From: Prosthecomicrobium sp. N25
GTDB lineage: Bacteria; Pseudomonadota; Alphaproteobacteria; Rhizobiales; Ancalomicrobiaceae
NCBI RefSeq assembly: GCF_037203705.1
Contig: NZ_JBBCAT010000001.1
Span: 1 to 64,000, forward strand
Direction: 5' to 3'
Length of the DNA: 64,000 nucleotides
The notes under the pieces were generated by a model. The model made no database searches. It was given only the letters and a program-made list of their open reading frames with translations, and was not told the origin of the DNA. Positions 1 to 12,033 of the stretch are shown here, in pieces; the stretch's first letter is position 1, and every line of letters starts with the position of its first letter. A program made the translations under genes and the position numbers.

Positions 1-1
1 G

Positions 2-326
2 AGCCGGATCGACGAACTGCTGCCGTGGGCATTCGGCAGGACGGCCGCCGAGGCCGTGGCCTGAGAACAGCGCTTACGAAGCTGGCACCGGCGAGTTGGG
101 CCGACTGCTCGAGGCCTATCGCGGCTTGGAGTCGGCCAATCTCGATGACAGTCTCAGCCCCCAAATGCGCCTGGCGGACCAGGTCTATCGGCTGGCCTCA
201 CGTCAATGCGTCGACGGATGCCGCGCCTGTCTGCACCTCGAAAGCGACCTAATGACCGAGTCGCTGCTGGCGAGTTCGGTCAGTCGGCGTCTACTGACAC
301 GCTTTATGACGGCGCCGGATGCCTAA
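2..326 (+). pseudogene. 3' end of a helicase-like gene, apparently frameshifted
   Basis: The left edge cuts this gene. Frame 2 reads a protein-like stretch containing IDELLPWAFGRT and then stops at about position 63. Frame 3 continues with a helical segment (GELGRLLEAYRGLES) and a CVDGCRACLH cysteine cluster, ending at TAA 324-326. A C-terminal CxxGCxxC cluster after an LLPW segment is typical of large superfamily 2 helicases with zinc-binding tails. The two halves in different frames suggest a frameshift near 45-65, either real or a sequencing error. The stop overlaps the stop of the convergent minus-strand gene, so the two end tail to tail. It may be the end of a DpdJ-type helicase, given the neighbouring dpd-like genes, but this is inference. 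Family assignment is weak. Confidence 0.4.
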
Positions 327-1021
327 TCGAGAGGCTGGACGATGAACTGATCGAGCGCCGACTTATCCCCCAGCCAGTCGAGCACCTTCCTCGTGACAAG
401 CGACAGCTTGACGTTACCCTTCGTAGCAAAGCCTGTAAGGAAGGCGTCAACCTCGGGGTCGCTCGCGAGACGGGTGAGGTCGCTCGTCAGCGCCAGACGC
501 GCATCTTGAAGCGCCTTCAACTTCTCGGGTAAAGCCCGACCCGCGGTTGGCAGACTGGATGCTATCGTGCGCAACTGACCGATACTGTTCGCGTCCTGGT
601 CGCGGCCGAGTCGCCGAAGTAGCCTTTCGAGCGCGCCGAGAGGCGCGACGTGATCCCGCGCATATGCGTCGGTCAGCATCTGTGCCGAGCGATGGAGCGT
701 GTTTAGGGAAGCATCAAGCCGTTTAATGTCGCGTACGATCGCGTCGAGATCCTCGGGCTGTGTGGCGCTTTCCATCCGCTCACCAAGATCAAGAATCGTC
801 TCGGTTGCGTCTTTGATATCGGCGCCGCGCAGTCCAAGGTAGTCGGGTAGCAGAGCATATGTATCGGCCAGAGATTTAAGCCGATCGAGCCGTTGCGGCA
901 CGTCGGCGCAGGCAGTGACCGCCGCGCTCAACGCCTTCCCAAGGTGCTGCTGGTTTACCGCACCCTTAAGGTGCGGCAGCGCGGCTTCCAGGCGCAGTAA
1001 TGGATCCGTTGTCGCGCTCAT
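323..1021 (-). CDS. Hypothetical protein, last gene of the dpd-like operon
   Basis: This 232-residue protein is mostly alpha-helical, with no transmembrane segment or signal peptide. Residues about 75-160 are rich in heptad-like Leu/Ala/Asp patterns and could form coiled coil. No catalytic motif is evident. Its ATG overlaps the stop of the upstream ATPase gene by four bases (ATGA), so it is translationally coupled and very probably works with that ATPase. By position it corresponds to the gene that follows dpdH in dpd clusters, but I cannot recognise it as DpdI by sequence. It is likely an accessory or structural subunit of the same machine; function is otherwise unknown. Confidence 0.7.
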   Translation of the reverse strand: MSATTDPLLRLEAALPHLKGAVNQQHLGKALSAAVTACADVPQRLDRLKSLADTYALLPDYLGLRGADIKDATETILDLGERMESATQPEDLDAIVRDIKRLDASLNTLHRSAQMLTDAYARDHVAPLGALERLLRRLGRDQDANSIGQLRTIASSLPTAGRALPEKLKALQDARLALTSDLTRLASDPEVDAFLTGFATKGNVKLSLVTRKVLDWLGDKSALDQFIVQPLD

Positions 1022-4000
1022 CCCGCCCTCGATGCGCTAAGCAGGTCTATGATTTCCTTGGCACCCGCAATCAAGGCAGTACCTTGCGCTTGAATGGTCT
1101 CCAGCCCGGCGATCGGACCCGATTCCGCCACTGTCGCGGCCGCGTGGTCGCCGAGAAGCGAGACGGCCGTCTCACCGGCGGTAAACGCGGCCAGAACGCT
1201 CTCGAGTAGCGCCGCCGGTGCGCTGACCAGCGCCGCAAGCATTGCTCCCGGGGAATCTTCTTCCTCATCGCCTGGCTCGCTGAACGGGTCTTCCTCATCC
1301 CGCATACTGGCAAAATTCCGTAGCGTCGTCTGAAGCGCATTGGCGTTCTCGACAAGCGACGAGATCACTGCCGTATAGGCGTTCTTCCACTCGCGTACCT
1401 TGTCGGCGGCAATGCCGGGTAGCGCCTTGCTTCCCGCCCCCAGTGCGGTTTCGAGCCGCTCACCATGAGCGCGCAGCGATTGGCCCCTTAGAAGACCGAG
1501 CAATCGCGTGGAGCGTTCGGTGAGACGTCGCTGTTCCTCGCTCATCATTACCGGCACCACATCGCGCGCCTTGACCAGTTGCTCGGCTGCCGTTTCGATG
1601 ATCTTGCGGGCTTCGGTCTGCGCCAGGATCTCCGCTGGCACATCGCTGAATTCCATTGTCCTGATCAAGGTCAAGATCGCCGCGACCCCGACTCCAGACG
1701 CCAGGCCGAAGTCCTTCGATTGGCCCTGGGGCAGGCTCAGACTCTCACGCAGCAAAGTGCGCAGAGCGGCATGCTGCTGATTTGTCCCAGTGAGGAGACT
1801 TCCCCACTTTGCCGTGCGTGCGGCGGGCGCGCTTTCAGCTGGGCCTTCATCCCGAAGTAGCACCAACCATTGTTCGACCGGCGCCGCGGTCGGTAACACC
1901 GCGCCGCGCAACCATGCGCGGACAAGGAGGATCTGGGCCGCCGCAACTGCGGGATTCCATCTCGATCCCTGCTCGGTCTCGCCGAGCGTTCGATCGATAT
2001 AGTTTGAGATTTCGCGTTTAAGGTGTCGGAGCAGTCGGGCAAGCCGGCTCTGGCGATATTCGACAATGTCCGGGAGCGCTGCCGGATTGGCCTCCATCTC
2101 CGCAAAGGCCTCAAGACCCTCCTGAAGCCAGGTGACCGCCGGCAAAATCAGCAGATCCTTACGCGCGGTTGCGGTGCCCTCGATCTTAAGCGTCGAAGGC
2201 TGGATTAAGCGGTTCCAAATCCATCCGTCATAGCCAAGCGTGCGTGGATCAATCTGGCCGGCGATCAAATAAAGAGCCTCATTCCACTCATTGGGGTTTT
2301 GGAGCTTGCCGCCGTCTTTGCGCCATTTGGTAATATTCGTTGGATCGAGCCGAAGCTTGGACCGATGCGGCGGCTTTTGCGTCGGCGACTGCCTGGTCGA
2401 GGCAGGAGGCGTTGGCGTCAGCAGGGGTTTCGGAACCGTTGGCGCAGGCGGACTTATGAACTGTTCGCGCGGAGCGCCATTCTCGCGCCCTGATGTCGGT
2501 GACGGCGTCTGCAGTTCTGGAACTTCGAATGGTGCGGCGGCTGGAATGGCGATCGCATCGCCAGGCTCTCCTCCCAGCCAAGGCAAGCGAAACGCCTCGA
2601 ATACGGCGCGAGGCACTCCGTGGAACGCGATCTGACCATTGCGTTCGATCGTCGTTTGCATTTCGCCGGAGGCGCCCCAAAAGGTAATGGTCCGCCTCAG
2701 GCGATCGCGTTCCGTTTGGTCCGCACTATGTGCCTGAAGCAATCGCTCAAGTGGAAGTGGCGCGTAGCGGGTGCGCGAGTCAAATGCTTTCACCTCGATG
2801 TTCGGACCTGGATAAGCGCCCTCGTCCAGCAATTCGGGCTGCCGCAAGCTGGGGCTGAGTATGGACTGGATCACGCCGCGCGGTGTCTTCCACGTGCGCC
2901 GCTGATCCTGCTCATTCAGCGCCTCGAAGAAACCGTCGAGCGCGCGCGCTGTAAATGGGAAAAATCCGATCCCGTCTATTTGACCAAACGCTGCATGACA
3001 GCCCTCTGCCATCGGACATTCTAGGCAAGGGTTGGGCGGCGGATAGTCCGATCCGCTCCTTTGCTCTTCGCGCCACGCGTTGAGCGCCAGTGGACCGGCG
3101 CGGGTCGCTGAGAGGTAGCGACTGACGAAACGCTGGCGATCGATGGGATCTCGCATCGTGGCGACGTCTTGGATGCCGTGTTCACCCTCGCCGAGGCTGA
3201 TCTTATGGGTAATCCGGTCCTGATAGTTGGTCCGAAGAGTGGTGTCGTAGTAATCGGGGGTCAGCCCGACAACCGACACTAGGTCGCACTGGTCACGCTC
3301 CTCCTCGTCATCGCTTCGCGTGTCGGAGTTGGTGGTGAGGACGTCGATCAGGCTGTCGTCTAGCCCTTCCCAACTGGTAATGTCCTCGAGCAGAAGCACG
3401 AGGCGCGCACCGCGGGTCCGCAGCGCCCGCCGGACTTCTCTGAATAGCTTCTTGAGACTGTCGGAGGTGACCCCAACGACATGCTGGATTGCGTCATTCT
3501 TTCGACGATTGAGAGCGTCGGCAAACGCGATGTGCTGAGGAATTTTGGGCCCAAGTTCACGTACAACTCGATCCGTATCCCATCCCGCCTCCCGCGCCTC
3601 TTCAATCTCGACCGACTCCCCTATCAAAGCCGCACGCAGGTTCAGCGCCTTCGACGCCTTGACGTCGTCGCGGCTAACCAATTCGTGCAGATCAAAGACA
3701 TCGAATACATTGAACCGCGCAGATTCTGAATTTCGATCTCCTTCTTTGCCCGAAATCAGCCGAAGGATCCGCCGCGGTGCATCCCACAACTCTTCGACAG
3801 CATCCGGTTTGAGCAGTTGCGAGGGCTGCCAGCGTTCGCACCAGTCATTATCCACCGGAGGCTTCTCGTAATGATCGCCCTTGAGCGCTTGCAGCAGATT
3901 GTTGTGAAAGGTGCGAGCACGCCCCGCTTCCGCGATTTTTTGCTTGTTCCCTAAGCCATCGAACAACTCCCTGAACTCGCTAGGAAGTTTCTCACGCAAT

Positions 4001-4356
4001 TGGGCGAGCGCGCCCTCGAGGCTTCCGTCCGAGCGCTGAAGGAGCAGCGGGGTATCTTTCCCGTTTCTTGGCCAATTGACATAGAGCCAGCGGATCAGGT
4101 GCGACTTGCCCGAACCGGGCTCCCCTTCGATTACGCAAAAGGCGTGATGGACATGGGGGGGCGAAATCGCAGCCAGCACACCGCGTTCGTCGAAAGTCCT
4201 GATCTCGTCCGCACGGCCACCACTGACAGTGAAGCCGCGAATTGGTGAGTGGGTGGCAAGAAAGATCGCCTCATTGCCTTCGAGCGCTTCGACTCGAAAC
4301 ATCGCTTTTGCAGCGTCGGCGGTCCAACATGCCTTGTTCGGAACGGCGTCAATCAT
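1018..4356 (-). CDS. dpdH: Large P-loop ATPase, DpdH-like
   Basis: This 1112-residue protein has an N-terminal P-loop ATPase domain. Walker A is GEPGSGKSH near residue 80 and a Walker B-like LVLLLEDI lies near residue 320. A small cysteine cluster (CLECPMAEGC, about 444-453) could bind zinc. A proline-rich linker at about 680-720 separates this from a long helical C-terminal half, and an acidic patch lies near residue 1000. Size, architecture and the order helicase, 300-residue protein, large ATPase match DpdF-DpdG-DpdH of the 7-deazapurine-in-DNA systems, where these genes belong to the restriction part. The start overlaps the previous gene by 8 bases and the stop overlaps the next by 4. It probably uses ATP to sense or process DNA lacking the modification; that role is inference. 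Confidence 0.65.
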   Translation of the reverse strand: MIDAVPNKACWTADAAKAMFRVEALEGNEAIFLATHSPIRGFTVSGGRADEIRTFDERGVLAAISPPHVHHAFCVIEGEPGSGKSHLIRWLYVNWPRNGKDTPLLLQRSDGSLEGALAQLREKLPSEFRELFDGLGNKQKIAEAGRARTFHNNLLQALKGDHYEKPPVDNDWCERWQPSQLLKPDAVEELWDAPRRILRLISGKEGDRNSESARFNVFDVFDLHELVSRDDVKASKALNLRAALIGESVEIEEAREAGWDTDRVVRELGPKIPQHIAFADALNRRKNDAIQHVVGVTSDSLKKLFREVRRALRTRGARLVLLLEDITSWEGLDDSLIDVLTTNSDTRSDDEEERDQCDLVSVVGLTPDYYDTTLRTNYQDRITHKISLGEGEHGIQDVATMRDPIDRQRFVSRYLSATRAGPLALNAWREEQRSGSDYPPPNPCLECPMAEGCHAAFGQIDGIGFFPFTARALDGFFEALNEQDQRRTWKTPRGVIQSILSPSLRQPELLDEGAYPGPNIEVKAFDSRTRYAPLPLERLLQAHSADQTERDRLRRTITFWGASGEMQTTIERNGQIAFHGVPRAVFEAFRLPWLGGEPGDAIAIPAAAPFEVPELQTPSPTSGRENGAPREQFISPPAPTVPKPLLTPTPPASTRQSPTQKPPHRSKLRLDPTNITKWRKDGGKLQNPNEWNEALYLIAGQIDPRTLGYDGWIWNRLIQPSTLKIEGTATARKDLLILPAVTWLQEGLEAFAEMEANPAALPDIVEYRQSRLARLLRHLKREISNYIDRTLGETEQGSRWNPAVAAAQILLVRAWLRGAVLPTAAPVEQWLVLLRDEGPAESAPAARTAKWGSLLTGTNQQHAALRTLLRESLSLPQGQSKDFGLASGVGVAAILTLIRTMEFSDVPAEILAQTEARKIIETAAEQLVKARDVVPVMMSEEQRRLTERSTRLLGLLRGQSLRAHGERLETALGAGSKALPGIAADKVREWKNAYTAVISSLVENANALQTTLRNFASMRDEEDPFSEPGDEEEDSPGAMLAALVSAPAALLESVLAAFTAGETAVSLLGDHAAATVAESGPIAGLETIQAQGTALIAGAKEIIDLLSASRAG

Positions 4357-5251
4357 CGAGCGTGCTCCCGTTCAACGTGACAGCGTTGAACGCCTTTACT
4401 TCGGCGAGAGAATCAGCTGCCAACCTCGCAGCAACTTGCGCGTCACCGCGAGGAACAATCAGCCGGATCACTTCGTCTTCGTGTAAGTCGCGAAGCGCCG
4501 CGCTTAGCAGGCGCGACACTGCGTTGCCGGGCACATAGTTCATGCGTTTCGCGGCCGCGAGGAACAGCGTGCCCTTATCGAGATAGGGCAAAGTGGCGGC
4601 CACCCATCCAAGAAACGCTACCGGCGAGATCGCCTGTTCTCGCGGCAAGTTGCTTGCGCGAAGCGCACGCCGGAGTCTGCCAGTGACCGACAGCAGCGTC
4701 GTCCGCGAGGAGAGCGTCTCATTGAGGCCAATAAATTCTACCCAGCGCAGCCAGGCTGGATGCCGGGTGGAGTTGTAGCGCTGGGCACTGGTCTCAACCG
4801 CTCGAGGTGTCAGCGAGCGTGTCAGCAAATCGGCAATCTGCGCCGCCGTCCACTCGCTCAGCCACTGCCGACTTCCCTGCTTCTCCGTCTCCACGACCAC
4901 ACACGCATAGGCATCGAGAATATCGGCATCCGCGGATTGGTGGGCCTGCGCCAGCAGCAGGTCGTGAACCAGATCGGAAAAGCCGCCAATGTCGGAAGGG
5001 AGTGCGGTGGTTAGCAAGCGGACGCTGTCACGACTGCTTTCGATCAGCCCCAAACCAGACGCCGCCTGCAGAGCCTGACTAACCAGACCACGGTCATTCT
5101 CATCGTGCGCTGTATCAGAGACGCCATCCCAACGCGGCCGCAACCATTGCTGCAGTTCGCTCCTAGGCGCGCTCCCCCCACACGCGGCTATGACCCTTGC
5201 GATCGCCCAGAGACGCTCCGGGGTACCCTGAGTTGCCGAAAGCAAGGCCAT
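4349..5251 (-). CDS. dpdG: DpdG-like protein
   Basis: This 300-residue soluble protein has a helical N-terminal part compatible with a winged-helix fold (residues about 10-95, with ERLWAIARVIAACGGS as a candidate first helix). The remainder is helical with no recognisable catalytic residues. It lies between the helicase gene (2 bases upstream) and the large ATPase gene (8-base overlap), so all three must be co-translated. Length and position match DpdG, whose biochemical role is not established. The identification rests mainly on context. It could be an adaptor between helicase and ATPase. Confidence 0.6.
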   Translation of the reverse strand: MALLSATQGTPERLWAIARVIAACGGSAPRSELQQWLRPRWDGVSDTAHDENDRGLVSQALQAASGLGLIESSRDSVRLLTTALPSDIGGFSDLVHDLLLAQAHQSADADILDAYACVVVETEKQGSRQWLSEWTAAQIADLLTRSLTPRAVETSAQRYNSTRHPAWLRWVEFIGLNETLSSRTTLLSVTGRLRRALRASNLPREQAISPVAFLGWVAATLPYLDKGTLFLAAAKRMNYVPGNAVSRLLSAALRDLHEDEVIRLIVPRGDAQVAARLAADSLAEVKAFNAVTLNGSTLDD

Positions 5252-5253
5252 TA

Positions 5254-7761
5254 TTACCCTCTCTCCTCAAGTGCGTCGCGAGCAAAGGTGGCGAGCACGG
5301 CGAGATCATAAGCGCCCGCCGGCGACGCGATGTCCGCGAGTGGACGGCCATCAAATTGCAAATCGGGCGCACCGATTATCACCAATGTCTGTGTAGGATA
5401 GCGGCTCAAGAAGCGACGGCTACGCTGCCACAAGCCTACACCGACTTGATCGTCGCGCGACAGGAACAGCGCAGTAGGTAAATTAAGCGCGTCGAACGCT
5501 GCATAGCCAAACCACTCGCGGTGCTCGGTTACCAGCCCTAGTCCGGTACCGCCGCACAGCGATGCAGCACATGCGCTGCCGTAGCCGTCTGGCACAAAGA
5601 ACTGCTCGATGCCGAGGCGTTGGAGAATTGAGATCGCGATATCAAAATCCGCCGCGATGTCGTCGCTTGCAACGAAGGTAGTGCCTGCGGGAAGCATAGG
5701 CGTCGTGCGCAACGCGCTTGGCCAAATATCCTGGCCGCCTGCGCAATGCATCTCATGCGGTGGTTGCCGACCTTTGCGCCGACAAGGCGGGCATCGCCCG
5801 CACTCGGGTGCCAAGCCCAGTGGGTCAACGAGACGATAGACACCTGCCAGCACACATTCAGTGCTGTTCGGGGCGCCCCGCATCACGCCGAGAAAAGACC
5901 GGAATTCCGCTAAGGCTTCGGCCTGTTCATCGTCGCGAAGCTTTTCGACACGTGCCCAAATCGCATCCTGTGAAGCTTCGTCCTCGAACAGTGCGTCATC
6001 GAGAATTTCAGCTTCCCAAAGCAGGGGCCCCGAGCCATTCGTTGCAACCTGTGTGACCCGGAGCAGGTCTGCGCGCTGCATCAGGTTGAGCAAGCTCATG
6101 TTCCAGCGCCGATTGTAATCGCTGCTCTCACCCTCGATTTCCTCATGGACCGCGTCAATGTCAAACCGCGCAAGTCGCCGATTGCCCGACCATTCAACCG
6201 CCAAGTCCCGCTCCGCGGAAATGCGCATCTTGCGCCAGCGCAACCGCGCCTTTTTCACCGACAACCATGAGCCCGCCGCCATAGCCGCGGCCTGGCTTTC
6301 GTCGTCCCGCGCTTTCTCCCCTTGTCGGAAGGGATCGGCACCCGGAGGCGGCTGGGTCCAGACGCTTAGAGCAATGCCTTGATGGCCATCGCGTCCCGAG
6401 CGCCCGATCTCCTGGTAATAGCGTGCGGGACTTTCCGGGATGCCTACATGAAGGATCGTTCGCACGTCGGCCTTGTCGATCCCCATCCCGAAGGCCGAGG
6501 TGGCGACAATCAAATCAAGCTTGTCCTCGGCCCAATCCGAAATAACCGACTGACGAAGCCCTGTATCGCTGAGCGCCCCCGTGAAGACGGCAAGCCGCGA
6601 ATAGTGTCGCTTGCGCAGTGTCAGAGCCAACGCCTCCGCGTGCTCGACCTGGTTGGTGTAGACAATTGTCGGACGCGGCGCATGGTCGATCAGACGCAAG
6701 AGCATCTCATCGCGCTCCTCGAGTGAGGAAACATAGGTCGCGGCCAGATCAAACTCGAATCGCGGGACGCCGGCATGCACCTCGAGCCAGAGACCCCCTC
6801 GATAGGCCTGGCGCAGCACCGTCCGGGCGGCCGGACCCAGCGTCGCGGACAAGAGCATGGTGCGCAAAGCAGGATTACGTTCGCGCAATTGATCGACCAG
6901 CGCCGGCAAGCGCTGGAAGTCGGGGCGAAAGCTCCGTCCCCAGGATTCTATGATATGCGCCTCATCGACAACGAAACCGCTAAGATGTGCCTCGACCCCT
7001 GGAGCCTTTCTGCCCGGCGCCATCGCCGCATCGAGTAATGCCTCTCGCGCGGTGGAGAACGCGAGTTCTGGAGAAAGAATGAGTACCGGAATTTCGCCTC
7101 GCCGGAACGCGTCAAGTAAATCGCGGCGGGCGTCGCTATTCAATTGCCCCGTCAGCGCACGACTATTTTCTAGCCCTGCTATCCCTTTCAGCGTGCGTTC
7201 GTGATCGAGCGCAAGCGCAACGGTGGGGGTGATCAGCGCGATGCAGGAGCGACCTTCCGAGGGCCAGAGATACGGGGCAGTCTGAAAAAGGAGGCTTTTG
7301 CCCGTTCCGGTCGGCATCGACACCATCAGGGTTGCGCCTACGGGCATGGTCGCGACAGCGCGAAGCCCGGCCTTCTGGGTCTCGCATCTATAGAATCGAT
7401 GCTGCGACAAGCGCAGCAGCACCGCGTCTGGCGGCGATGTTCGGTATGGGCGACGCGGCGCGCTATCGAGCAGCATCGCCTCGGCAAAATCCTGGGGAAC
7501 TCCGGCGGGACGTCCATCCAGCCGCACAGTCGTACCGACAAGCGACAGTCCGAATCGTCCCAACATCGCCCGCTCATCGTCTTTCAGAACAATGTCGTGA
7601 CCAGCCAGATTGAGCACATTGTCAGAAAGGCGCACCCAATCCCGAAGCAGTGCTAGCCGGTCACCGGCTGTCCGCGCAACTGCGAACGCTGTAGCCGCAC
7701 GCTTAATGCTACGCGAGCGCCAGGCCTCTCTCACGTTATTCTCCGTGAGAACCCCTCCCAT
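5254..7761 (-). CDS. dpdF: RecQ-like ATP-dependent DNA helicase, DpdF-like
   Basis: This protein of about 835 residues carries a full superfamily 2 helicase core: Walker A MPTGTGKS near residue 150, DEAH near 266, SAT near 307, and motif VI QEIGRSGRDG near 455, in the form usual for RecQ. A cysteine cluster follows near 655-675 (CGRCPPC, then a distal Cys), resembling the RecQ zinc site. The C-terminal part resembles a phosphoribosyltransferase-like fold (TLVIIGAPD), as reported for some DpdF-like proteins, but this is tentative. It is the first gene of the four-gene operon. The start is uncertain: GTG 7770, ATG 7761, or GTG 7734 with a good GGAG. It likely unwinds DNA during restriction of DNA lacking 7-deazaguanine modification; no dpdA is visible in the window. 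Confidence 0.7.
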   Translation of the reverse strand: MGGVLTENNVREAWRSRSIKRAATAFAVARTAGDRLALLRDWVRLSDNVLNLAGHDIVLKDDERAMLGRFGLSLVGTTVRLDGRPAGVPQDFAEAMLLDSAPRRPYRTSPPDAVLLRLSQHRFYRCETQKAGLRAVATMPVGATLMVSMPTGTGKSLLFQTAPYLWPSEGRSCIALITPTVALALDHERTLKGIAGLENSRALTGQLNSDARRDLLDAFRRGEIPVLILSPELAFSTAREALLDAAMAPGRKAPGVEAHLSGFVVDEAHIIESWGRSFRPDFQRLPALVDQLRERNPALRTMLLSATLGPAARTVLRQAYRGGLWLEVHAGVPRFEFDLAATYVSSLEERDEMLLRLIDHAPRPTIVYTNQVEHAEALALTLRKRHYSRLAVFTGALSDTGLRQSVISDWAEDKLDLIVATSAFGMGIDKADVRTILHVGIPESPARYYQEIGRSGRDGHQGIALSVWTQPPPGADPFRQGEKARDDESQAAAMAAGSWLSVKKARLRWRKMRISAERDLAVEWSGNRRLARFDIDAVHEEIEGESSDYNRRWNMSLLNLMQRADLLRVTQVATNGSGPLLWEAEILDDALFEDEASQDAIWARVEKLRDDEQAEALAEFRSFLGVMRGAPNSTECVLAGVYRLVDPLGLAPECGRCPPCRRKGRQPPHEMHCAGGQDIWPSALRTTPMLPAGTTFVASDDIAADFDIAISILQRLGIEQFFVPDGYGSACAASLCGGTGLGLVTEHREWFGYAAFDALNLPTALFLSRDDQVGVGLWQRSRRFLSRYPTQTLVIIGAPDLQFDGRPLADIASPAGAYDLAVLATFARDALEERG

Positions 7762-7770
7762 CAGGAGCAC

Positions 7771-8371: not shown

Positions 8372-8815
8372 TTAGGGATTGGTTGCGGCTCTTGCCGAAC
8401 GAGCCTGGTAGTCTGCCTCTTCCAGCCATTCCTCGCTTAAGATAGGTCCCTCTCGGCCGACCTTCTCGCAGTGTTCGACGCGAGCTTGCACCTCCCGCTG
8501 GCCCTTGACCGAGAGCTCCACCGTGGACCTTAAGTTCGGGCCCAATTCCTCCAGTTCCTCAGCACCCCAACCAACCCCGGAAAGCAGTCGCTCGTAAAGG
8601 CCCCGGTAACAGGACGCTAGGTATCGCGCCGCGCCCTCGATTGACGATGACGTGACCTCTTCCAAGAGTTCCTTGCACTCTATACAACAAGGGATCGGCA
8701 CCAGAGCGGAAGCATCTACGTGCTCTGTGGATTTCTCTGGACTGCGAGGCAGGAAGTCGTACGGAACCCGGTAGGTCGATGTCGTGCGATCGCCACAATA
8801 CAGGCAGGTCGCCAT
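8372..8815 (-). CDS. Small zinc-ribbon protein of unknown function
   Basis: The chosen ATG at 8815 is preceded by GGGAG seven bases upstream and gives 147 residues starting MATCLYCG. An upstream in-frame start at 8902 adds 29 residues without protein character. Two CxxC pairs (CLYC at residues 4-7 and CIEC about 38 residues later) would form a four-cysteine zinc site, as in HNH-type or zinc-ribbon proteins. No HNH catalytic histidine cluster is seen. The C-terminal half is helical and charged. It stands alone next to the dpd-like operon and may be a cargo gene of the same accessory region. Confidence 0.65.
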   Translation of the reverse strand: MATCLYCGDRTTSTYRVPYDFLPRSPEKSTEHVDASALVPIPCCIECKELLEEVTSSSIEGAARYLASCYRGLYERLLSGVGWGAEELEELGPNLRSTVELSVKGQREVQARVEHCEKVGREGPILSEEWLEEADYQARSARAATNP

Positions 8816-9559
8816 TTTGCTACTCCCAAGCAAATATTCAGCGGACGTGCCGCGGGAGGGTTGGATGCCCGTTAGCAGATCAGCCTTGGCTCGGACTGAC
8901 AAGAGATTCCTGCCCGGGCGGCGCTAGCGCCAACGGAGGAGCGGGCTTCCAGTCTTCCTAACGATCGGCTATGCAAAGGCGGCAGACCGCGATGCCAATG
9001 CCGGGGGGTGAAGACCCTGCCCAAGCCTTATCGGATCGACGATCTGGCAGTTGCTGTACACGAAGCTGTGGTTGCGGGGGCCAGCAATACTTAAAGCGCA
9101 CAACGAGGACGTGTGGCACAACGGCTGCATGCCGGGCCCAAGCTAGCAGTAGAAGAATCAAACCCAACCGAGGCTATTGGGGAAGGCACTCGTTAGTGGG
9201 ACCATGCGCGCCGTTTGCAAAGTGAGGGCGGGGTGCGCGTGTCTGGTGGGACGGTCGGGTGGCCTCTGCTCTCCTGGGGCACAGCAGGGGGCCAAGGCCT
9301 TGCATCGGAGTGGGTCCACATAGCGAGACATGCCCCATAAGCCTCTCCCCCACCCCGGGGGAGGGCATACCACCTGCCTTATACGCGTGTATTCGTGGTA
9401 GAGCGGACGGCCGGCGCGCGCGCGTGGGATCTGGGAGGCCCGATACCACACATGTCGATCTCGTCTGCACCGACTTGTCTCGAAGCCGGGGACGGCCCGG
9501 CGCACTCGTCAGCGAAGGGTTCGCGCCCGGATTCACACCGGGCTGCAATGCGAGAGCCA
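8816..9559. other. Non-coding or degenerate stretch
   Basis: No supported gene lies in these roughly 740 bases. Overlapping short frames in several phases show no recognisable motif, and the stretch runs into the decayed cyclase gene. It contains a GC-rich hairpin at 9343-9365. Confidence 0.5.
9343..9365. repeat. GC-rich intergenic hairpin
   Basis: CTCCCCC at 9345-9351 pairs with GGGGGAG at 9357-9363 around an ACCCC loop, and the stem extends by a T-G wobble and a C-G pair. Similar C-rich/G-rich hairpins are frequent intergenic repeats in Hyphomicrobiales genomes. There is no U-tract, so it is not a convincing terminator. Confidence 0.5.
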
Positions 9560-10662
9560 TCAGAGGCCGAAGACGCGCTCTGCCCCTGAGATCCCGCGCA
9601 GACTATGGACCCCGAGAGGATCGAGAGAGCCTTCGACGTTCCGGGCCATTGCATGGGAGAGCACGACCCGGTGGCCGAGTTTCTTGGCGAGGTCCTGCAG
9701 CCGAGTCGCGCGGTTGACGGCCGGCCTAACGACCGTGAAGTCCAGCCGTCGCGGCGCGCCGACATTGCCGAACGCAACGTAGCCGACGTGAAGCCCCAGG
9801 GCGAAATCGAAGCTACCTCCAGCCTCCAACCTGTTGACCAATGCTCCGAGGTCGCGGGCGGCGTGGATCGCACTGCGCAGGCACGCTCGGTCGGCCGCGT
9901 AGGTGTCACGGGAAAGATTGCCAGAACGGCGTCCCCGATGAACATCAGAACTTCGCCGTCATGGGCCGAAATGGCCGTTACGGTGAGTTAGAACTAACGG
10001 CCCAGCGCGTCGATGACTTTGTCGATCGGGCGCGCCTCGGCGAGAGCCGTAAAGCGGCGCAGGTCCGCGAACCAGATTGCAGCCGTGTTCGTCTCCACGC
10101 TGCCGCGTTCGATCCGGCCGCCGATGATGCGCACGCCGAGGTATGTGTCGAGCAGATCCGATGTCAGCCGCTGCCGAACGAAGCGCTCGATCCAGGGGGT
10201 TTACGGCCGTAATCAGGCTCTGTACTTGGTCGAGATCCGCGGTCGTAAAGCCTGCGGCGGCGCATCACGGCGGTGCGCGTCCGGTCCAGAAACGGCAGCG
10301 GCACCATGAAGTAGTCGGTCATCCCAACGCGCCGAAGGTCGTCGAGCAACGGCATGTCGGGAGTCGGCGCGTCGAGCCGACGTGAACGCGGCCCCGGTCT
10401 CGTCGACCACCCGCGTCGGGCTCAGGAGATATGCCGGGTTTCATCGCGGACCGTTTCGGAACGCTCGACGGGGGCGTGATCGGTCCAGACGAGCATCCGC
10501 CCGCTGATTTCGGGATGGAGGAACTCCGATCCCCAGGGACAGGCGCGACAGGCCTGCGTCCTCGGTGCGCAATTGCTCGCAAAGGCCGACAAAAAGCGCG
10601 TCGAGGGTCTCGAATCCGGCGGCATTCGTCGCCAGCCAAAGCGCCAGTTGGTCGGCTCGCAT
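9560..10662 (-). pseudogene. Decayed class III adenylate/guanylate cyclase
   Basis: Pieces of one cyclase lie in order on the minus strand but in different frames. The N-terminal region begins MRADQLALWLAT at 10662. A middle region contains MTDYFMVPLPF. The catalytic domain begins with AAIWFADLRRFTALAE at about 10100-10060, the metal-binding FxDLrGFT motif. A stop follows IDALGR near 9990. The second metal motif MFIGDAVLAIFP starts at 9945, and the C-terminal half (LGLHVGYVAFGNVGAPRRLDFTV to RVFGL) starts near 9841. At least three frame changes and a stop make it non-functional. The catalytic motifs remain readable, so the decay is recent. The intact ancestor would have made cyclic nucleotides in the cytoplasm. 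Confidence 0.85.
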
Positions 10663-10849
10663 GGGGGCCCTCCGGGCACAGGGTGCACCGGACACAACTG
10701 GACCCGCAAGGCCGAGACGCCAAAGAGACGCCGCGCGCGACCGGGAGTGCGAGGCACACGACTACGTAGCAGCATTGGACCGGGTGCCCGCGTCGGCCGA
10801 CCCGGTTACGGTTGCCGGATCAGTCAATCAGCGACTGCGCGAAGGGCAG

Positions 10850-11375
10850 CGTATGTGTTCGTATCTTCCACCAGCAGCGTTGGCGACCGTCGGACGGACC
10901 GAACGAACGTCAGGTTCGCCGACGGAGACCTGGGCCGTGCCGAGGTGCTCGCCTCCGATCTCTGGCGCCAAGCCGACGACCGGCTGAAGCGCGGCGAGAT
11001 CGTCGGGTCTCCGCAATCCGCACCGACCTGGCGGCCAGCGCGGACACCGACGATCTCCGACTCGCGCCCTTCGTGGGGTGGGCTGCCTCCGGGGTGATCG
11101 AGCCCGACGGCTCCATCAACCGCGGGGCCCAGAAACTGCCCGGCAACTGGTCGAGCACCAGCCTTAACCTGTCTCACGAGATCGCCGCTTGCATCGGCCG
11201 CATTGTCGGCGCGGAGCCCGCGATCATGCTCCACAACGCCGCCGTCCTAAAGGCCCGGTCCGAGATCCCGGTTTTGAAGGATGTGGACTCGTGGGCCGTG
11301 CTGACCATCGGGACCGGTCTCGGCAACGCAAGCTTCAGGAATCGGCAGGACGACGCGCGGCCTAAACAAGCGGGC
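10850..11375 (+). pseudogene. Probable remnant of a ROK-like sugar kinase/ATPase
   Basis: One plus-strand frame encodes VRFADGDLGRAEVLASDLW (near 10910-10970). A second frame from about 11019 encodes PDGSINRGAQKLPG, then HEIAACIGRIVG, and SWAVLTIGTGLGNASFRN. The last segment resembles the phosphate-2 loop of the actin-like ATPase fold in ROK kinases, where a TIGTGLG-type loop follows a short strand. The change of frame and absence of a plausible start mean the gene is broken. The family call depends on one motif and general context, so it is tentative. It is oriented away from the cyclase remnant. Confidence 0.45.
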
Positions 11376-11511
11376 TGGGGCCCGAATTCTCAAGCCTAGG
11401 TGCCGGACGATGCCTCAGTCGCCTTCTCGCCCAAACGCGAGTTTTTGTGGAACACCCGGACTGGGCGGCTAACACGTTTACTGAAGACGCCCCCTGGAGC
11501 CTCTCCCGACC

Positions 11512-11523
11512 GGGGGGGGGGGG
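11512..11523. repeat. Homopolymer run of 12 G
   Basis: Twelve consecutive G residues interrupt otherwise unstructured sequence. Runs of this length are rare and slip easily in replication and in sequencing. Nothing coding depends on it. Confidence 0.9.
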
Positions 11524-11563
11524 CTGGGACTGGACCCCTTAGTAAGACTAGGTAAGTAGACGG

Positions 11564-11573
11564 TTTTGTGGGC
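11564..11573 (+). repeat. Candidate attachment/arm site, left copy
   Basis: TTTTGTGGGC occurs here and again, in the same orientation, at 17088 and 17125 beside the integrase start. Short TGTGGGC-type repeats close to P4-family integrase genes are often integrase-binding arm sites or part of att. The copy here lies just beyond the last gene of the element, about 5.5 kb from the others, as expected for the opposite end. This is inferred from position only. Confidence 0.45.
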
Positions 11574-11649
11574 ACACATCAAGCGAGCTCCAAATAGCCT
11601 TGTATACGCAGCCACGTGACCCCGGAACGGGGCGGACTGTTACTCCGCC

Positions 11650-12033
11650 CTACGGCTCCGAGGAGCCATGCTCAATGAGTTGCTGAGCCGATTGGAACGG
11701 GACAGCACTGGCCTGTTGCGCCGCCCTTAGGCGGTCCTGTGATTTTGCCGTTTCATTCGCCTTTTTCAGAGCCGTGAGGAAGGCCTCATGGATTGATGGC
11801 TGAGACACTTCAACTGAGGCGGACTGGTGTGGGCGCCCCAACGTACGATTGAGAATCTCAACAGCAGCAATCACCTGGAGTCGGGGATCGTTCCCGCACA
11901 ACGCGGCCTCGAGCGCTTTGACCGCCTTCGGCGTGAGCGCCTGAAGCATCTCCTTGACTTCCTCAGGCGTTTTCGGCCGTCCACCTGGGTTGCCAGAACT
12001 GCCAGGTAAAAATCTGCCCGCTGAGTTCCGCAA
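11650..12033 (-). CDS. DUF5681 domain protein
   Basis: This 127-residue protein begins with the DUF5681 signature GRFLPGSSGNPGGRP (residues 5-19) followed by a helical region. DUF5681 proteins are common in alphaproteobacterial prophages and genomic islands, often near terminase or replication genes, and are thought to be small DNA-associated proteins; no activity is established. It is the last gene of the putative element, separated from the helicase gene by 256 bases that contain the GTGGC repeat block. Confidence 0.8.
   Translation of the reverse strand: MRNSAGRFLPGSSGNPGGRPKTPEEVKEMLQALTPKAVKALEAALCGNDPRLQVIAAVEILNRTLGRPHQSASVEVSQPSIHEAFLTALKKANETAKSQDRLRAAQQASAVPFQSAQQLIEHGSSEP

What the first reader, a model, noticed from the sequence alone, without database searches (positions are those of the whole stretch)
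323..7770. DpdFGH-like restriction operon with an extra 232-residue gene
Four minus-strand genes are locked by overlaps of 8 and 4 bases and a 2-base gap: RecQ-like helicase, 300-residue protein, P-loop ATPase of 1112 residues and a 232-residue protein. Motifs are seen directly; order and sizes match DpdF, DpdG and DpdH of the 7-deazapurine DNA modification-restriction cluster. No dpdA-like transglycosylase or queuosine-pathway gene is in view, so the module is either incomplete or continues left. The fourth protein is not recognised and could be a new component.
Basis: partly seen in the sequence, partly recalled or inferred. Interest (0 to 1): 0.75.

Follow-up and report, generated by a model that had tools for sequence, protein, structure and literature searches.

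The report
Dpd DNA-marking defence with Dna2-like nuclease
The four genes are one half of a known kind of bacterial anti-virus system that marks its own DNA with a modified base, here cut in two by a jumping gene, and in this branch the system seems to carry an overlooked DNA-cutting enzyme.

Summary
Profiles identify them as DpdF, DpdG, DpdH and, for the "unrecognised" 232-residue protein, a divergent DpdI. The window starts at a contig end. DpdA, two DpdB, DpdC, QueC and a VUT-type transporter lie on contig C8 of the same genome. C8 and the window meet at an IS66-type element inside dpdJ: both flanks carry the same 8-base duplication, and the two pieces match neighbouring positions of one DpdJ profile. 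So the module continues left. The insertion cuts off the last ~80 residues of DpdJ, with three of four conserved late cysteines (probable zinc site).

Next to dpdJ sits a 762-residue RecB-family nuclease ("N") that no PADLOC model matched. Long dpdJ follows N in 30 of 33 N-selected loci, and N-J occurs in 6 of 6 close relatives found through DpdH. N and the SF1 helicase at the front of DpdJ align in order along single-chain nuclease-helicase proteins of other microbes. The genome has no DpdK match and no credible DpdD or DpdE. I read this as a Dpd variant whose restriction arm uses a split Dna2-like nuclease-helicase: a new variant of a known kind.

The parts
1..77 (+). End of an IS66-type insertion sequence at the contig start
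   Evidence: Identical copies at C8:20791-20867(-) and C1:3238982-3239058(-). The 77 bases match 17 plasmid records; of the 12 listed (76-81% identity) six places are annotated 'IS66 family transposase'.
78..85 (.). Target-site duplication GAAGCTGG
   Evidence: The same 8 bases flank the other end of the element on C8.
78..326 (+). C-terminal tail of the broken dpdJ, with three of the four conserved late cysteines; convergent with dpdI, the two ends overlapping by 4 bases
   Evidence: PADLOC PDLC02895 positions 2036-2109 of 2112, 67.7 bits; conserved Cys columns; own J profile 2028-2123/2125 for frame 3-323. NCBIfam gave 0 families for the frame 3-326 and Pfam 0 for 78-323.
323..1021 (-). dpdI (divergent), 232 aa
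   Evidence: NF041066 DpdI 4.5e-5; 26 of 29 subfamily members match DpdI at E <= 0.01; profile-profile 97.6% with the protein after DpdH in three canonical clusters. PADLOC: 0 families.
1018..4356 (-). dpdH, P-loop ATPase, 1112 aa
   Evidence: PADLOC PDLC02884 768 bits over 6-1098; NF041065 285 bits, cut-off 450.
4349..5251 (-). dpdG, 300 aa
   Evidence: NF041064 56.9 bits over 1-280, cut-off 80; 34-40% identity to the G of four plasmid clusters. PADLOC: 0 families.
5254..7770 (-). dpdF, RecQ-like helicase, 838 aa
   Evidence: PADLOC PDLC02862 585 bits; NF041063 447 bits, cut-off 550.

Best explanation
The operon is the F-G-H-I half of a Dpd (7-deazapurine-in-DNA) modification-restriction island, of a branch in which the canonical DpdD, DpdE and DpdK are missing and the restriction arm has a RecB-family nuclease (N) coupled to a DpdJ that carries an extra SF1 helicase at its front. 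Shown here: gene content, order, family membership, conserved nuclease and cysteine residues, N-J coupling, and the collinearity of N and the J front with single-chain nuclease-helicase proteins. Inferred: DpdA with DpdB puts preQ0 into the cell's DNA and DpdC converts it to the amide; preQ0 comes from uptake (VUT transporter) or partial synthesis; the F/G/H/I/J set inspects DNA and loads on stretches lacking the mark; the N-J pair, working like Dna2 or AddAB, unwinds and degrades that DNA. In this genome an IS66-type insertion truncates dpdJ before its last conserved cysteines, so the likely present state is marking intact, restriction weakened or lost.
For: DpdF/G/H/I profiles. On C8: DpdA 545 bits and DpdB 445 and 376 bits, all above curated cut-offs; DpdC 207 bits (PADLOC); QueC; VUT transporter. 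dpdJ pieces map to 1-2033 and 2036-2109 of the same 2112-position profile, with an identical 8-base duplication at both IS ends. N: RecB-like TIGR03491 44 bits, below its cut-off of 97. Residues C18, D120, D137, K139, Q151, Y155, C239, C242, C248 identical in 33 of 33 aligned sequences. J follows N in 30 of 33 N-selected loci, with a 4-base stop-start overlap in 24 of the 29 measurable. In 6 of 6 close DpdH-selected relatives (4 plasmids, G412, L060) N-J is present; in the 3 remote ones N was not found. N aligns to six single-chain proteins (hhalign 99.8%, columns 17-652 of 763 to 33-770) and the J front to 954-1422 (100%). Predicted fold of N: best PDB match Dna2, then MGME1 and RecE; the helicases DinG, Sen1 and senataxin are also in the first ten.
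Against: No Foldseek match for N reaches E 0.001, and unrelated proteins (riboflavin synthase, HincII) stand among the weak matches; no PDB sequence match to E 1. NCBIfam scores of F, G, H, I and J are all below their equivalog cut-offs, and NCBIfam has no match for DpdC at E 0.1. The last ~110 columns of N are not in the local alignment with the single-chain proteins, and its C-terminal part alone gives only 30%. In this genome N and J do not overlap but stand 2 bases apart. The IS junction is inferred from two contig ends, not seen in one contig. Modified bases and defence were not measured. My D/E/K absence test on loci uses profiles of one or two sequences and missed a PLD-annotated protein in L013. 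The only own QueE found looks truncated.
Confidence: 0.75

Rival explanations
1. N is a passenger repair or defence nuclease that rides beside dpdJ and is not part of Dpd restriction; the SF1 front of DpdJ only aids translocation.
For: Relatives of N occur as single-chain proteins outside Dpd clusters. No experiment links N to Dpd.
Against: N and J overlap by 4 bases in 24 of 29 measurable N-selected loci. N is adjacent to J in 30 of 33 loci and in 6 of 6 clusters found without using N. The SF1 half that pairs with N in other proteins is fused to DpdJ.
Confidence: 0.12
2. F-G-H-I is a free-standing defence system that does not depend on DNA marking, and the dpdA cluster on C8 is an unrelated island.
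For: C8 and C1 are separate contigs.
Against: dpdJ is split between the two contigs at neighbouring profile positions with a matching 8-base duplication. The synthesis and restriction genes lie in one stretch in L009, L010, L011, G412 and L060.
Confidence: 0.04
3. The cluster is a decaying relic: IS elements (IS66-type in dpdJ; IS3, IS110 and IS21 parts between the halves) have silenced it and it has no present role.
For: dpdJ is truncated; transposase genes lie between N and dpdC; the queE/queD pair is missing from its usual place on C8.
Against: dpdA, both dpdB, dpdC, F, G, H, I and N are open, with lengths like those of relatives.
Confidence: 0.3
4. The 232-residue protein is a new component that only sits where DpdI sits.
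For: Own match to the DpdI model is weak, 23.6 bits against a cut-off of 150. Only the C-terminal part aligns with canonical DpdI. 3 of 29 members do not match DpdI at E 0.01.
Against: 26 of 29 members match DpdI; it follows H as in the canonical clusters; profile-profile E 3e-12.
Confidence: 0.06

Closest known systems
Canonical Dpd islands (dpdA-C synthesis, dpdD-K restriction; restriction genes of this type in the Nostoc, Deinococcus and Paenibacillus plasmid stretches fetched here)
   Same: DpdA, DpdB, DpdC and Que genes; F-G-H-I order; DpdJ helicase core (NF041067 positions 1-676, 301 bits, cut-off 800)
   Different: In this genome DpdK is not found, DpdE matches are generic helicases and the one weak DpdD match is an unrelated protein; DpdJ is ~2110 aa in relatives, with an SF1 front and four conserved late cysteines; a RecB-family nuclease is coupled to it; J is convergent with I
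PADLOC DpdJ model PDLC02895 (2112 positions)
   Same: The long DpdJ matches it end to end (2085 bits; tail 68 bits)
   Different: PADLOC 2.0.0 has no model that matches N at E 0.1
Bifunctional RecB family nuclease/DEAD/DEAH box helicase (single-chain; halophilic archaea, and a like protein in Chlorohelix)
   Same: Nuclease and SF1 helicase collinear with N and J residues ~42-485
   Different: One chain instead of two; no gene annotated dpd in the six neighbourhoods fetched
Dna2 / AddAB / MGME1 (RecB-family nucleases, some with an iron-sulphur staple)
   Same: Nuclease fold; one early and three late cysteines spaced C-x2-C-x5-C (resemblance to AddB and Dna2 recalled); SF1 partner
   Different: Foldseek matches are weak (best E 7.7e-3)
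BRIGADE (Bell et al. 2025, PMC12458937; outline and passages read)
   Same: 7-deazaguanine genes with YprA-family helicases; PLD nuclease occasionally replaced by PD-(D/E)xK
   Different: Reported exclusively in halophilic archaea, usually with two YprA helicases; here a Dpd-type YprA helicase in bacteria

Membership tests
Dpd modification-restriction system | DpdA transglycosylase | tested here: met
   C8:16940-18229, 544.5 bits, cut-off 200
Dpd modification-restriction system | DpdB | tested here: met
   Two copies, 445 and 376 bits, cut-off 300
Dpd modification-restriction system | DpdC | tested here: met
   PADLOC PDLC02815, 207 bits; Pfam DUF6884 21.6 bits, below its cut-off of 30; NCBIfam 0 families at E 0.1
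Dpd modification-restriction system | DpdF, DpdG, DpdH, DpdI | tested here: met
   Profile matches, but NCBIfam scores are below the equivalog cut-offs for all four
Dpd modification-restriction system | DpdJ | tested here: met
   PDLC02895 2085 bits for the C8 piece, 68 bits for the window piece; NF041067 301 bits, cut-off 800; the gene is broken by an IS in this genome
Canonical Dpd (DpdD-K set) | DpdK phospholipase D-type nuclease | tested here: not met
   No match in own genome at E 0.001
Canonical Dpd (DpdD-K set) | DpdD and DpdE | tested here: not met
   Own genome: DpdD one match of 19.8 bits (cut-off 300; 0 of 14 control genomes ring), which lies in a 1531-aa protein with Abhydrolase_1, AAA_16 and TPR domains and no PADLOC match; DpdE best 28.6 bits (cut-off 500; 14 of 14 controls ring)
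Dpd modification-restriction system | dPreQ0/dADG in genomic DNA | not testable with these tools
   Needs mass spectrometry
Dpd modification-restriction system | Restriction of unmarked DNA | not testable with these tools
   Needs transformation or phage assays
RecB-family nuclease with Fe-S-type cysteines (for N) | D...DxK, QxxxY and one early plus three late Cys | tested here: met
   All nine positions identical in 33 of 33 aligned sequences; meaning of the motif recalled; TIGR03491 44 bits is below its cut-off of 97
BRIGADE | Halophilic archaeal host | tested here: not met
   The 33 N-selected loci have bacterial record titles
BRIGADE | ARMADA-like YprA helicase | tested here: inconclusive
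   The DpdJ here scores best with DpdJ models; other DpdJ matches in the own genome are weak, 28 and 22 bits; no ARMADA model was searched

The most novel reading that the evidence does not exclude
A distinct Dpd class exists in which a Dna2-like enzyme, split into a RecB/Fe-S nuclease (N) and an SF1 helicase fused to the front of DpdJ, is the effector that replaces DpdD, DpdE and DpdK, so that unmarked DNA is unwound and degraded rather than cut by a PLD nuclease.
Probability: 0.6. Interest if true: 0.62.

Novelty: new variant of a known kind. Interest (0 to 1): 0.5.

Why it matters
To my knowledge (recalled, not searched) it is not settled which enzyme destroys unmarked DNA in Dpd systems. 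If this branch uses a coupled nuclease and helicase instead of DpdK, it gives a smaller restriction set (F, G, H, I, J, N) with one clear nuclease active site to test. It also means that defence-gene scans that rely on PADLOC's Dpd models would miss a component, and that public annotation can leave F to J of this branch without dpd names (Skermanella F, G, H, I, J and N carry only generic or 'hypothetical' names). The IS66-type insertion shows a natural case in which the restriction side, not the marking side, is hit.

Tried and rejected
Rejected: a stand-alone FGH(I) system (dpdJ spans both contigs); the fourth protein as new (it is DpdI); a DpdK elsewhere in the genome (no match); the weak DpdD match at C1:2635251 (19.8 bits), which lies in a 1531-aa protein with Abhydrolase_1, AAA_16 and TPR domains and 0 PADLOC families.

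Led nowhere: genome-contig scan with DpdH alone found 0 relatives among 142 stretches. Class survey with the DpdH alignment: 1 of 385 genomes, our own. Order survey: 2 of 397, our own and G412. DpdI fold: all helical, pLDDT 84.5, no PDB match with E <= 0.001. PDB sequence search with N: 0 matches to E 1. The C-terminal part of N alone aligns only weakly to the single-chain proteins (30%, E 5e-4), so collinearity rests on the whole-protein alignment, whose local part covers columns 17-652 of 763. Promoter/terminator scan upstream of dpdF: one plus-strand promoter-like site (shuffles 0.3) and two terminator-like sites (shuffles 0.9), little to build on.

Papers: GATOR-GC PMC11888242 (passages), YprA helicases PMC12458937 (outline and passages), BREX PMC12839542 (passages); all other papers only as search listings. 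PMC10966956, PMC10164549, PMC4801273 and PMC6207457 are not held, so what they say of Dpd genes is recalled or second-hand. Searches for Dpd and a RecB-type nuclease; none of the passages that I read in three papers described N; supplements were not read.
Full report
WHAT WAS CLAIMED AND WHAT IS THERE. The four minus-strand genes exist at the stated coordinates with the stated overlaps. The window is bases 1-64000 of contig C1 of a 5.95-Mb, 17-contig genome, so the operon's far end lies against a contig end.

FAMILIES. PADLOC names the 838-aa protein DpdF (585 bits) and the 1112-aa protein DpdH (768 bits) and gives nothing for the 300-aa and 232-aa proteins. NCBIfam gives DpdF 447, DpdH 285, DpdG 56.9 and DpdI 23.6 bits, all below the curated cut-offs of 550, 450, 80 and 150. 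For the 232-aa protein I aligned 29 members of the same subfamily: 26 of 29 match NCBIfam DpdI at E <= 0.01 (best 3.5e-9), and the subfamily profile matches a profile of the three proteins that follow DpdH in the Nostoc, Deinococcus and Paenibacillus clusters (97.6%, E 3e-12, C-terminal 130 columns). It is DpdI.

WHERE THE REST IS. DpdA has one match in the genome, at C8:16940-18229 (544.5 bits, cut-off 200). C8 is 20,867 bases. It holds, on the plus strand, DpdC (PADLOC 207 bits; NCBIfam nothing), DpdB (445 bits), DpdA, a second DpdB (376 bits), QueC and a VUT-type transporter, and on the minus strand a 2050-aa DpdJ and a 762-aa protein called N here. N's frame is 791 aa from the first possible start; relatives begin at its Met30. 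Between N and DpdC lie IS3, IS110 and IS21 parts.

THE BREAK. C1 begins with 77 bases identical to the right end of C8 and to C1:3238982-3239058, which is the other end of C1 (length 3,239,058). Similar places in plasmid records are annotated IS66 family transposase in six of the 12 records listed. The left end of C8 is the other end of the element. The bases next to the element are GAAGCTGG on both sides, an 8-base duplication (that IS66 elements duplicate 8 bases is recalled). The C8 piece of DpdJ matches positions 1-2033 and the window piece 2036-2109 of the 2112-position model PDLC02895. Hence the element sits inside dpdJ, and the order is N, dpdJ, [IS], dpdJ tail, then dpdI-H-G-F on the other strand. 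A second copy of the element joins the right end of C1 to C10 with the duplication GGGATATG. Where the right end of C8 joins is not known. In 31 other long DpdJ sequences, 13 cysteine columns are conserved; four of them lie in the last 190 residues (31, 30, 30 and 30 of 31; L038 among the 31 is cut by its contig end), and three of these four are in the tail cut off here. They resemble the DUF1998 zinc cluster that Bell et al. [quoted passage not shown]); that they bind zinc is inference.

THE OVERLOOKED GENE. N matches TIGR03491, a RecB-like nuclease family, at 44 bits (cut-off 97), and no PADLOC family at E <= 0.1. A genome-contig scan with a five-member N alignment gave 33 loci (only two short peptide patterns were used, so this is a lower bound). 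DpdJ follows N in 30 of the 33; in L045 and L047 the contig ends inside N, and L046 is a remnant. In the 29 with single frames the N-J spacing is a 4-base overlap in 24, and -1, 2, 2, 3 and 18 in the others. In the window's own genome it is a 2-base gap; in the four plasmid clusters it is -4 in three and 7 in one. DpdI was found in 26 of 33 and lies on the opposite strand in 25 of 25 measurable cases; the seven without are L016 (F and G follow J, and the fetched stretch ends within H), five contig ends (L030, L038, L041, L045, L047) and the remnant L046. DpdA was found in 16 of 33; for the rest the fetched stretch may simply end too early. L043 is in many frames and was counted as pieces.

A SAMPLE NOT CHOSEN BY N. 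DpdH searches gave 7 plasmid records, G412 (the one match besides our own among 397 genomes of the order) and one unverified 'phage' contig. The six close ones (four plasmids at 42-45% identity, G412, L060 at 36%) all carry N next to long DpdJ; in the three remote ones (Nostoc, Paenibacillus, Deinococcus, 23-30%) N was not found in the fetched stretch. In the Methylobacterium and Caulobacter clusters the annotated gene tables, which leave little room between the parts, show no DpdD, DpdE or DpdK. The own genome has no DpdK match, DpdE only generic helicases (14 of 14 control genomes ring too), and one DpdD match of 19.8 bits (0 of 14 controls ring) that lies in a 1531-aa protein with Abhydrolase_1, AAA_16 and TPR domains, so I do not take it for DpdD. 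My locus profiles for D, E and K come from one or two sequences and did not find a PLD-annotated protein in L013, so absence in other loci is less certain.

WHAT N IS. In all 33 aligned full-length N sequences C18, D120, D137, K139, Q151, Y155, C239, C242 and C248 are identical (five partial or broken copies, L041, L043 and L045-L047, were left out): the RecB nuclease residues and, as recalled, the cysteine pattern of the AddB/Dna2 iron-sulphur staple. The predicted fold (pLDDT 84.3, 30 sequences) has as best PDB matches Dna2 (E 7.7e-3), MGME1 (1.7e-2), RecE (1.8e-2) and DinG (1.9e-2), with Sen1 and senataxin in the first ten; riboflavin synthase and HincII also appear lower down, and none reaches E 0.001. 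A 1326-aa protein of Chlorohelix and longer proteins of halophilic archaea, two of the six fetched named 'bifunctional RecB family nuclease/DEAD/DEAH box helicase', hold both parts in one chain. Against six such proteins, N columns 17-652 of 763 align with 33-770 (99.8%, E 6.5e-29) and J residues 42-485 with 954-1422 (100%, E 1.2e-58). The C-terminal part of N alone gives only 30%. So N and the front of DpdJ together correspond to one nuclease-helicase, split in two, with the helicase half fused to DpdJ.

MECHANISM. DpdA/DpdB insert preQ0 and DpdC makes the amide (as told in PMC12839542 and PMC11888242, passages). QueD-type genes match twice in the genome. The only QueE match, sought with one Caulobacter protein, is in a 145-aa frame on C4 (a more distant QueE could be missed), so import through the VUT transporter may supply preQ0 (inference). 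DpdF (RecQ-like), DpdH (P-loop ATPase) and DpdJ (SF2) then test and open DNA, and N-J degrades what is not marked (inference). In this genome DpdJ lacks its last ~80 residues. Both helicase cores and N remain, so partial function cannot be excluded.

NOVELTY. PADLOC already holds the long DpdJ as a model, so long DpdJ is known. N as a Dpd part, and the split Dna2-like pairing, I did not find in the papers searched (passages of three papers read, no supplements; four main Dpd papers not held). I file this as a new variant of a known kind.

Noticed in passing
L061 (own genome, C4 about 473979-475200): A dpdB-like C-terminal fragment (by eye), a truncated queE (145 aa) and a queD piece near a transposase-like frame: remnant of a second dpd synthesis module.
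   Followed up: partly
L060 (MT835580.1): A record labelled 'UNVERIFIED Bacteriophage sp.' from a human faecal sample carries a complete cluster of this branch; its gene content suggests bacterial DNA rather than a phage.
   Followed up: partly
L046 (Devosia sp. ZB163 scaffold_0): Degraded N in two frames followed directly by a dpdH fragment, while the same strain has an intact copy in L024.
   Followed up: no
L067-L071: Single-chain RecB-SF1 proteins of halophilic archaeal plasmids; several lie near Piwi-domain, restriction, integrase or helicase genes and could be defence nucleases in their own right.
   Followed up: no
L043 (Brucella oryzae NBRC 102588): A dpd cluster of this branch in many frames all along; could be sequencing error or decay. 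Described only.
   Followed up: no
window 8372-12033: Mostly short, weakly supported frames right of dpdF; of three scanned, one matches DUF5681. May be island-edge debris.
   Followed up: partly
C1 right end and C10:3033-3108: A second copy of the IS66-type element links these contig ends, duplication GGGATATG.
   Followed up: yes
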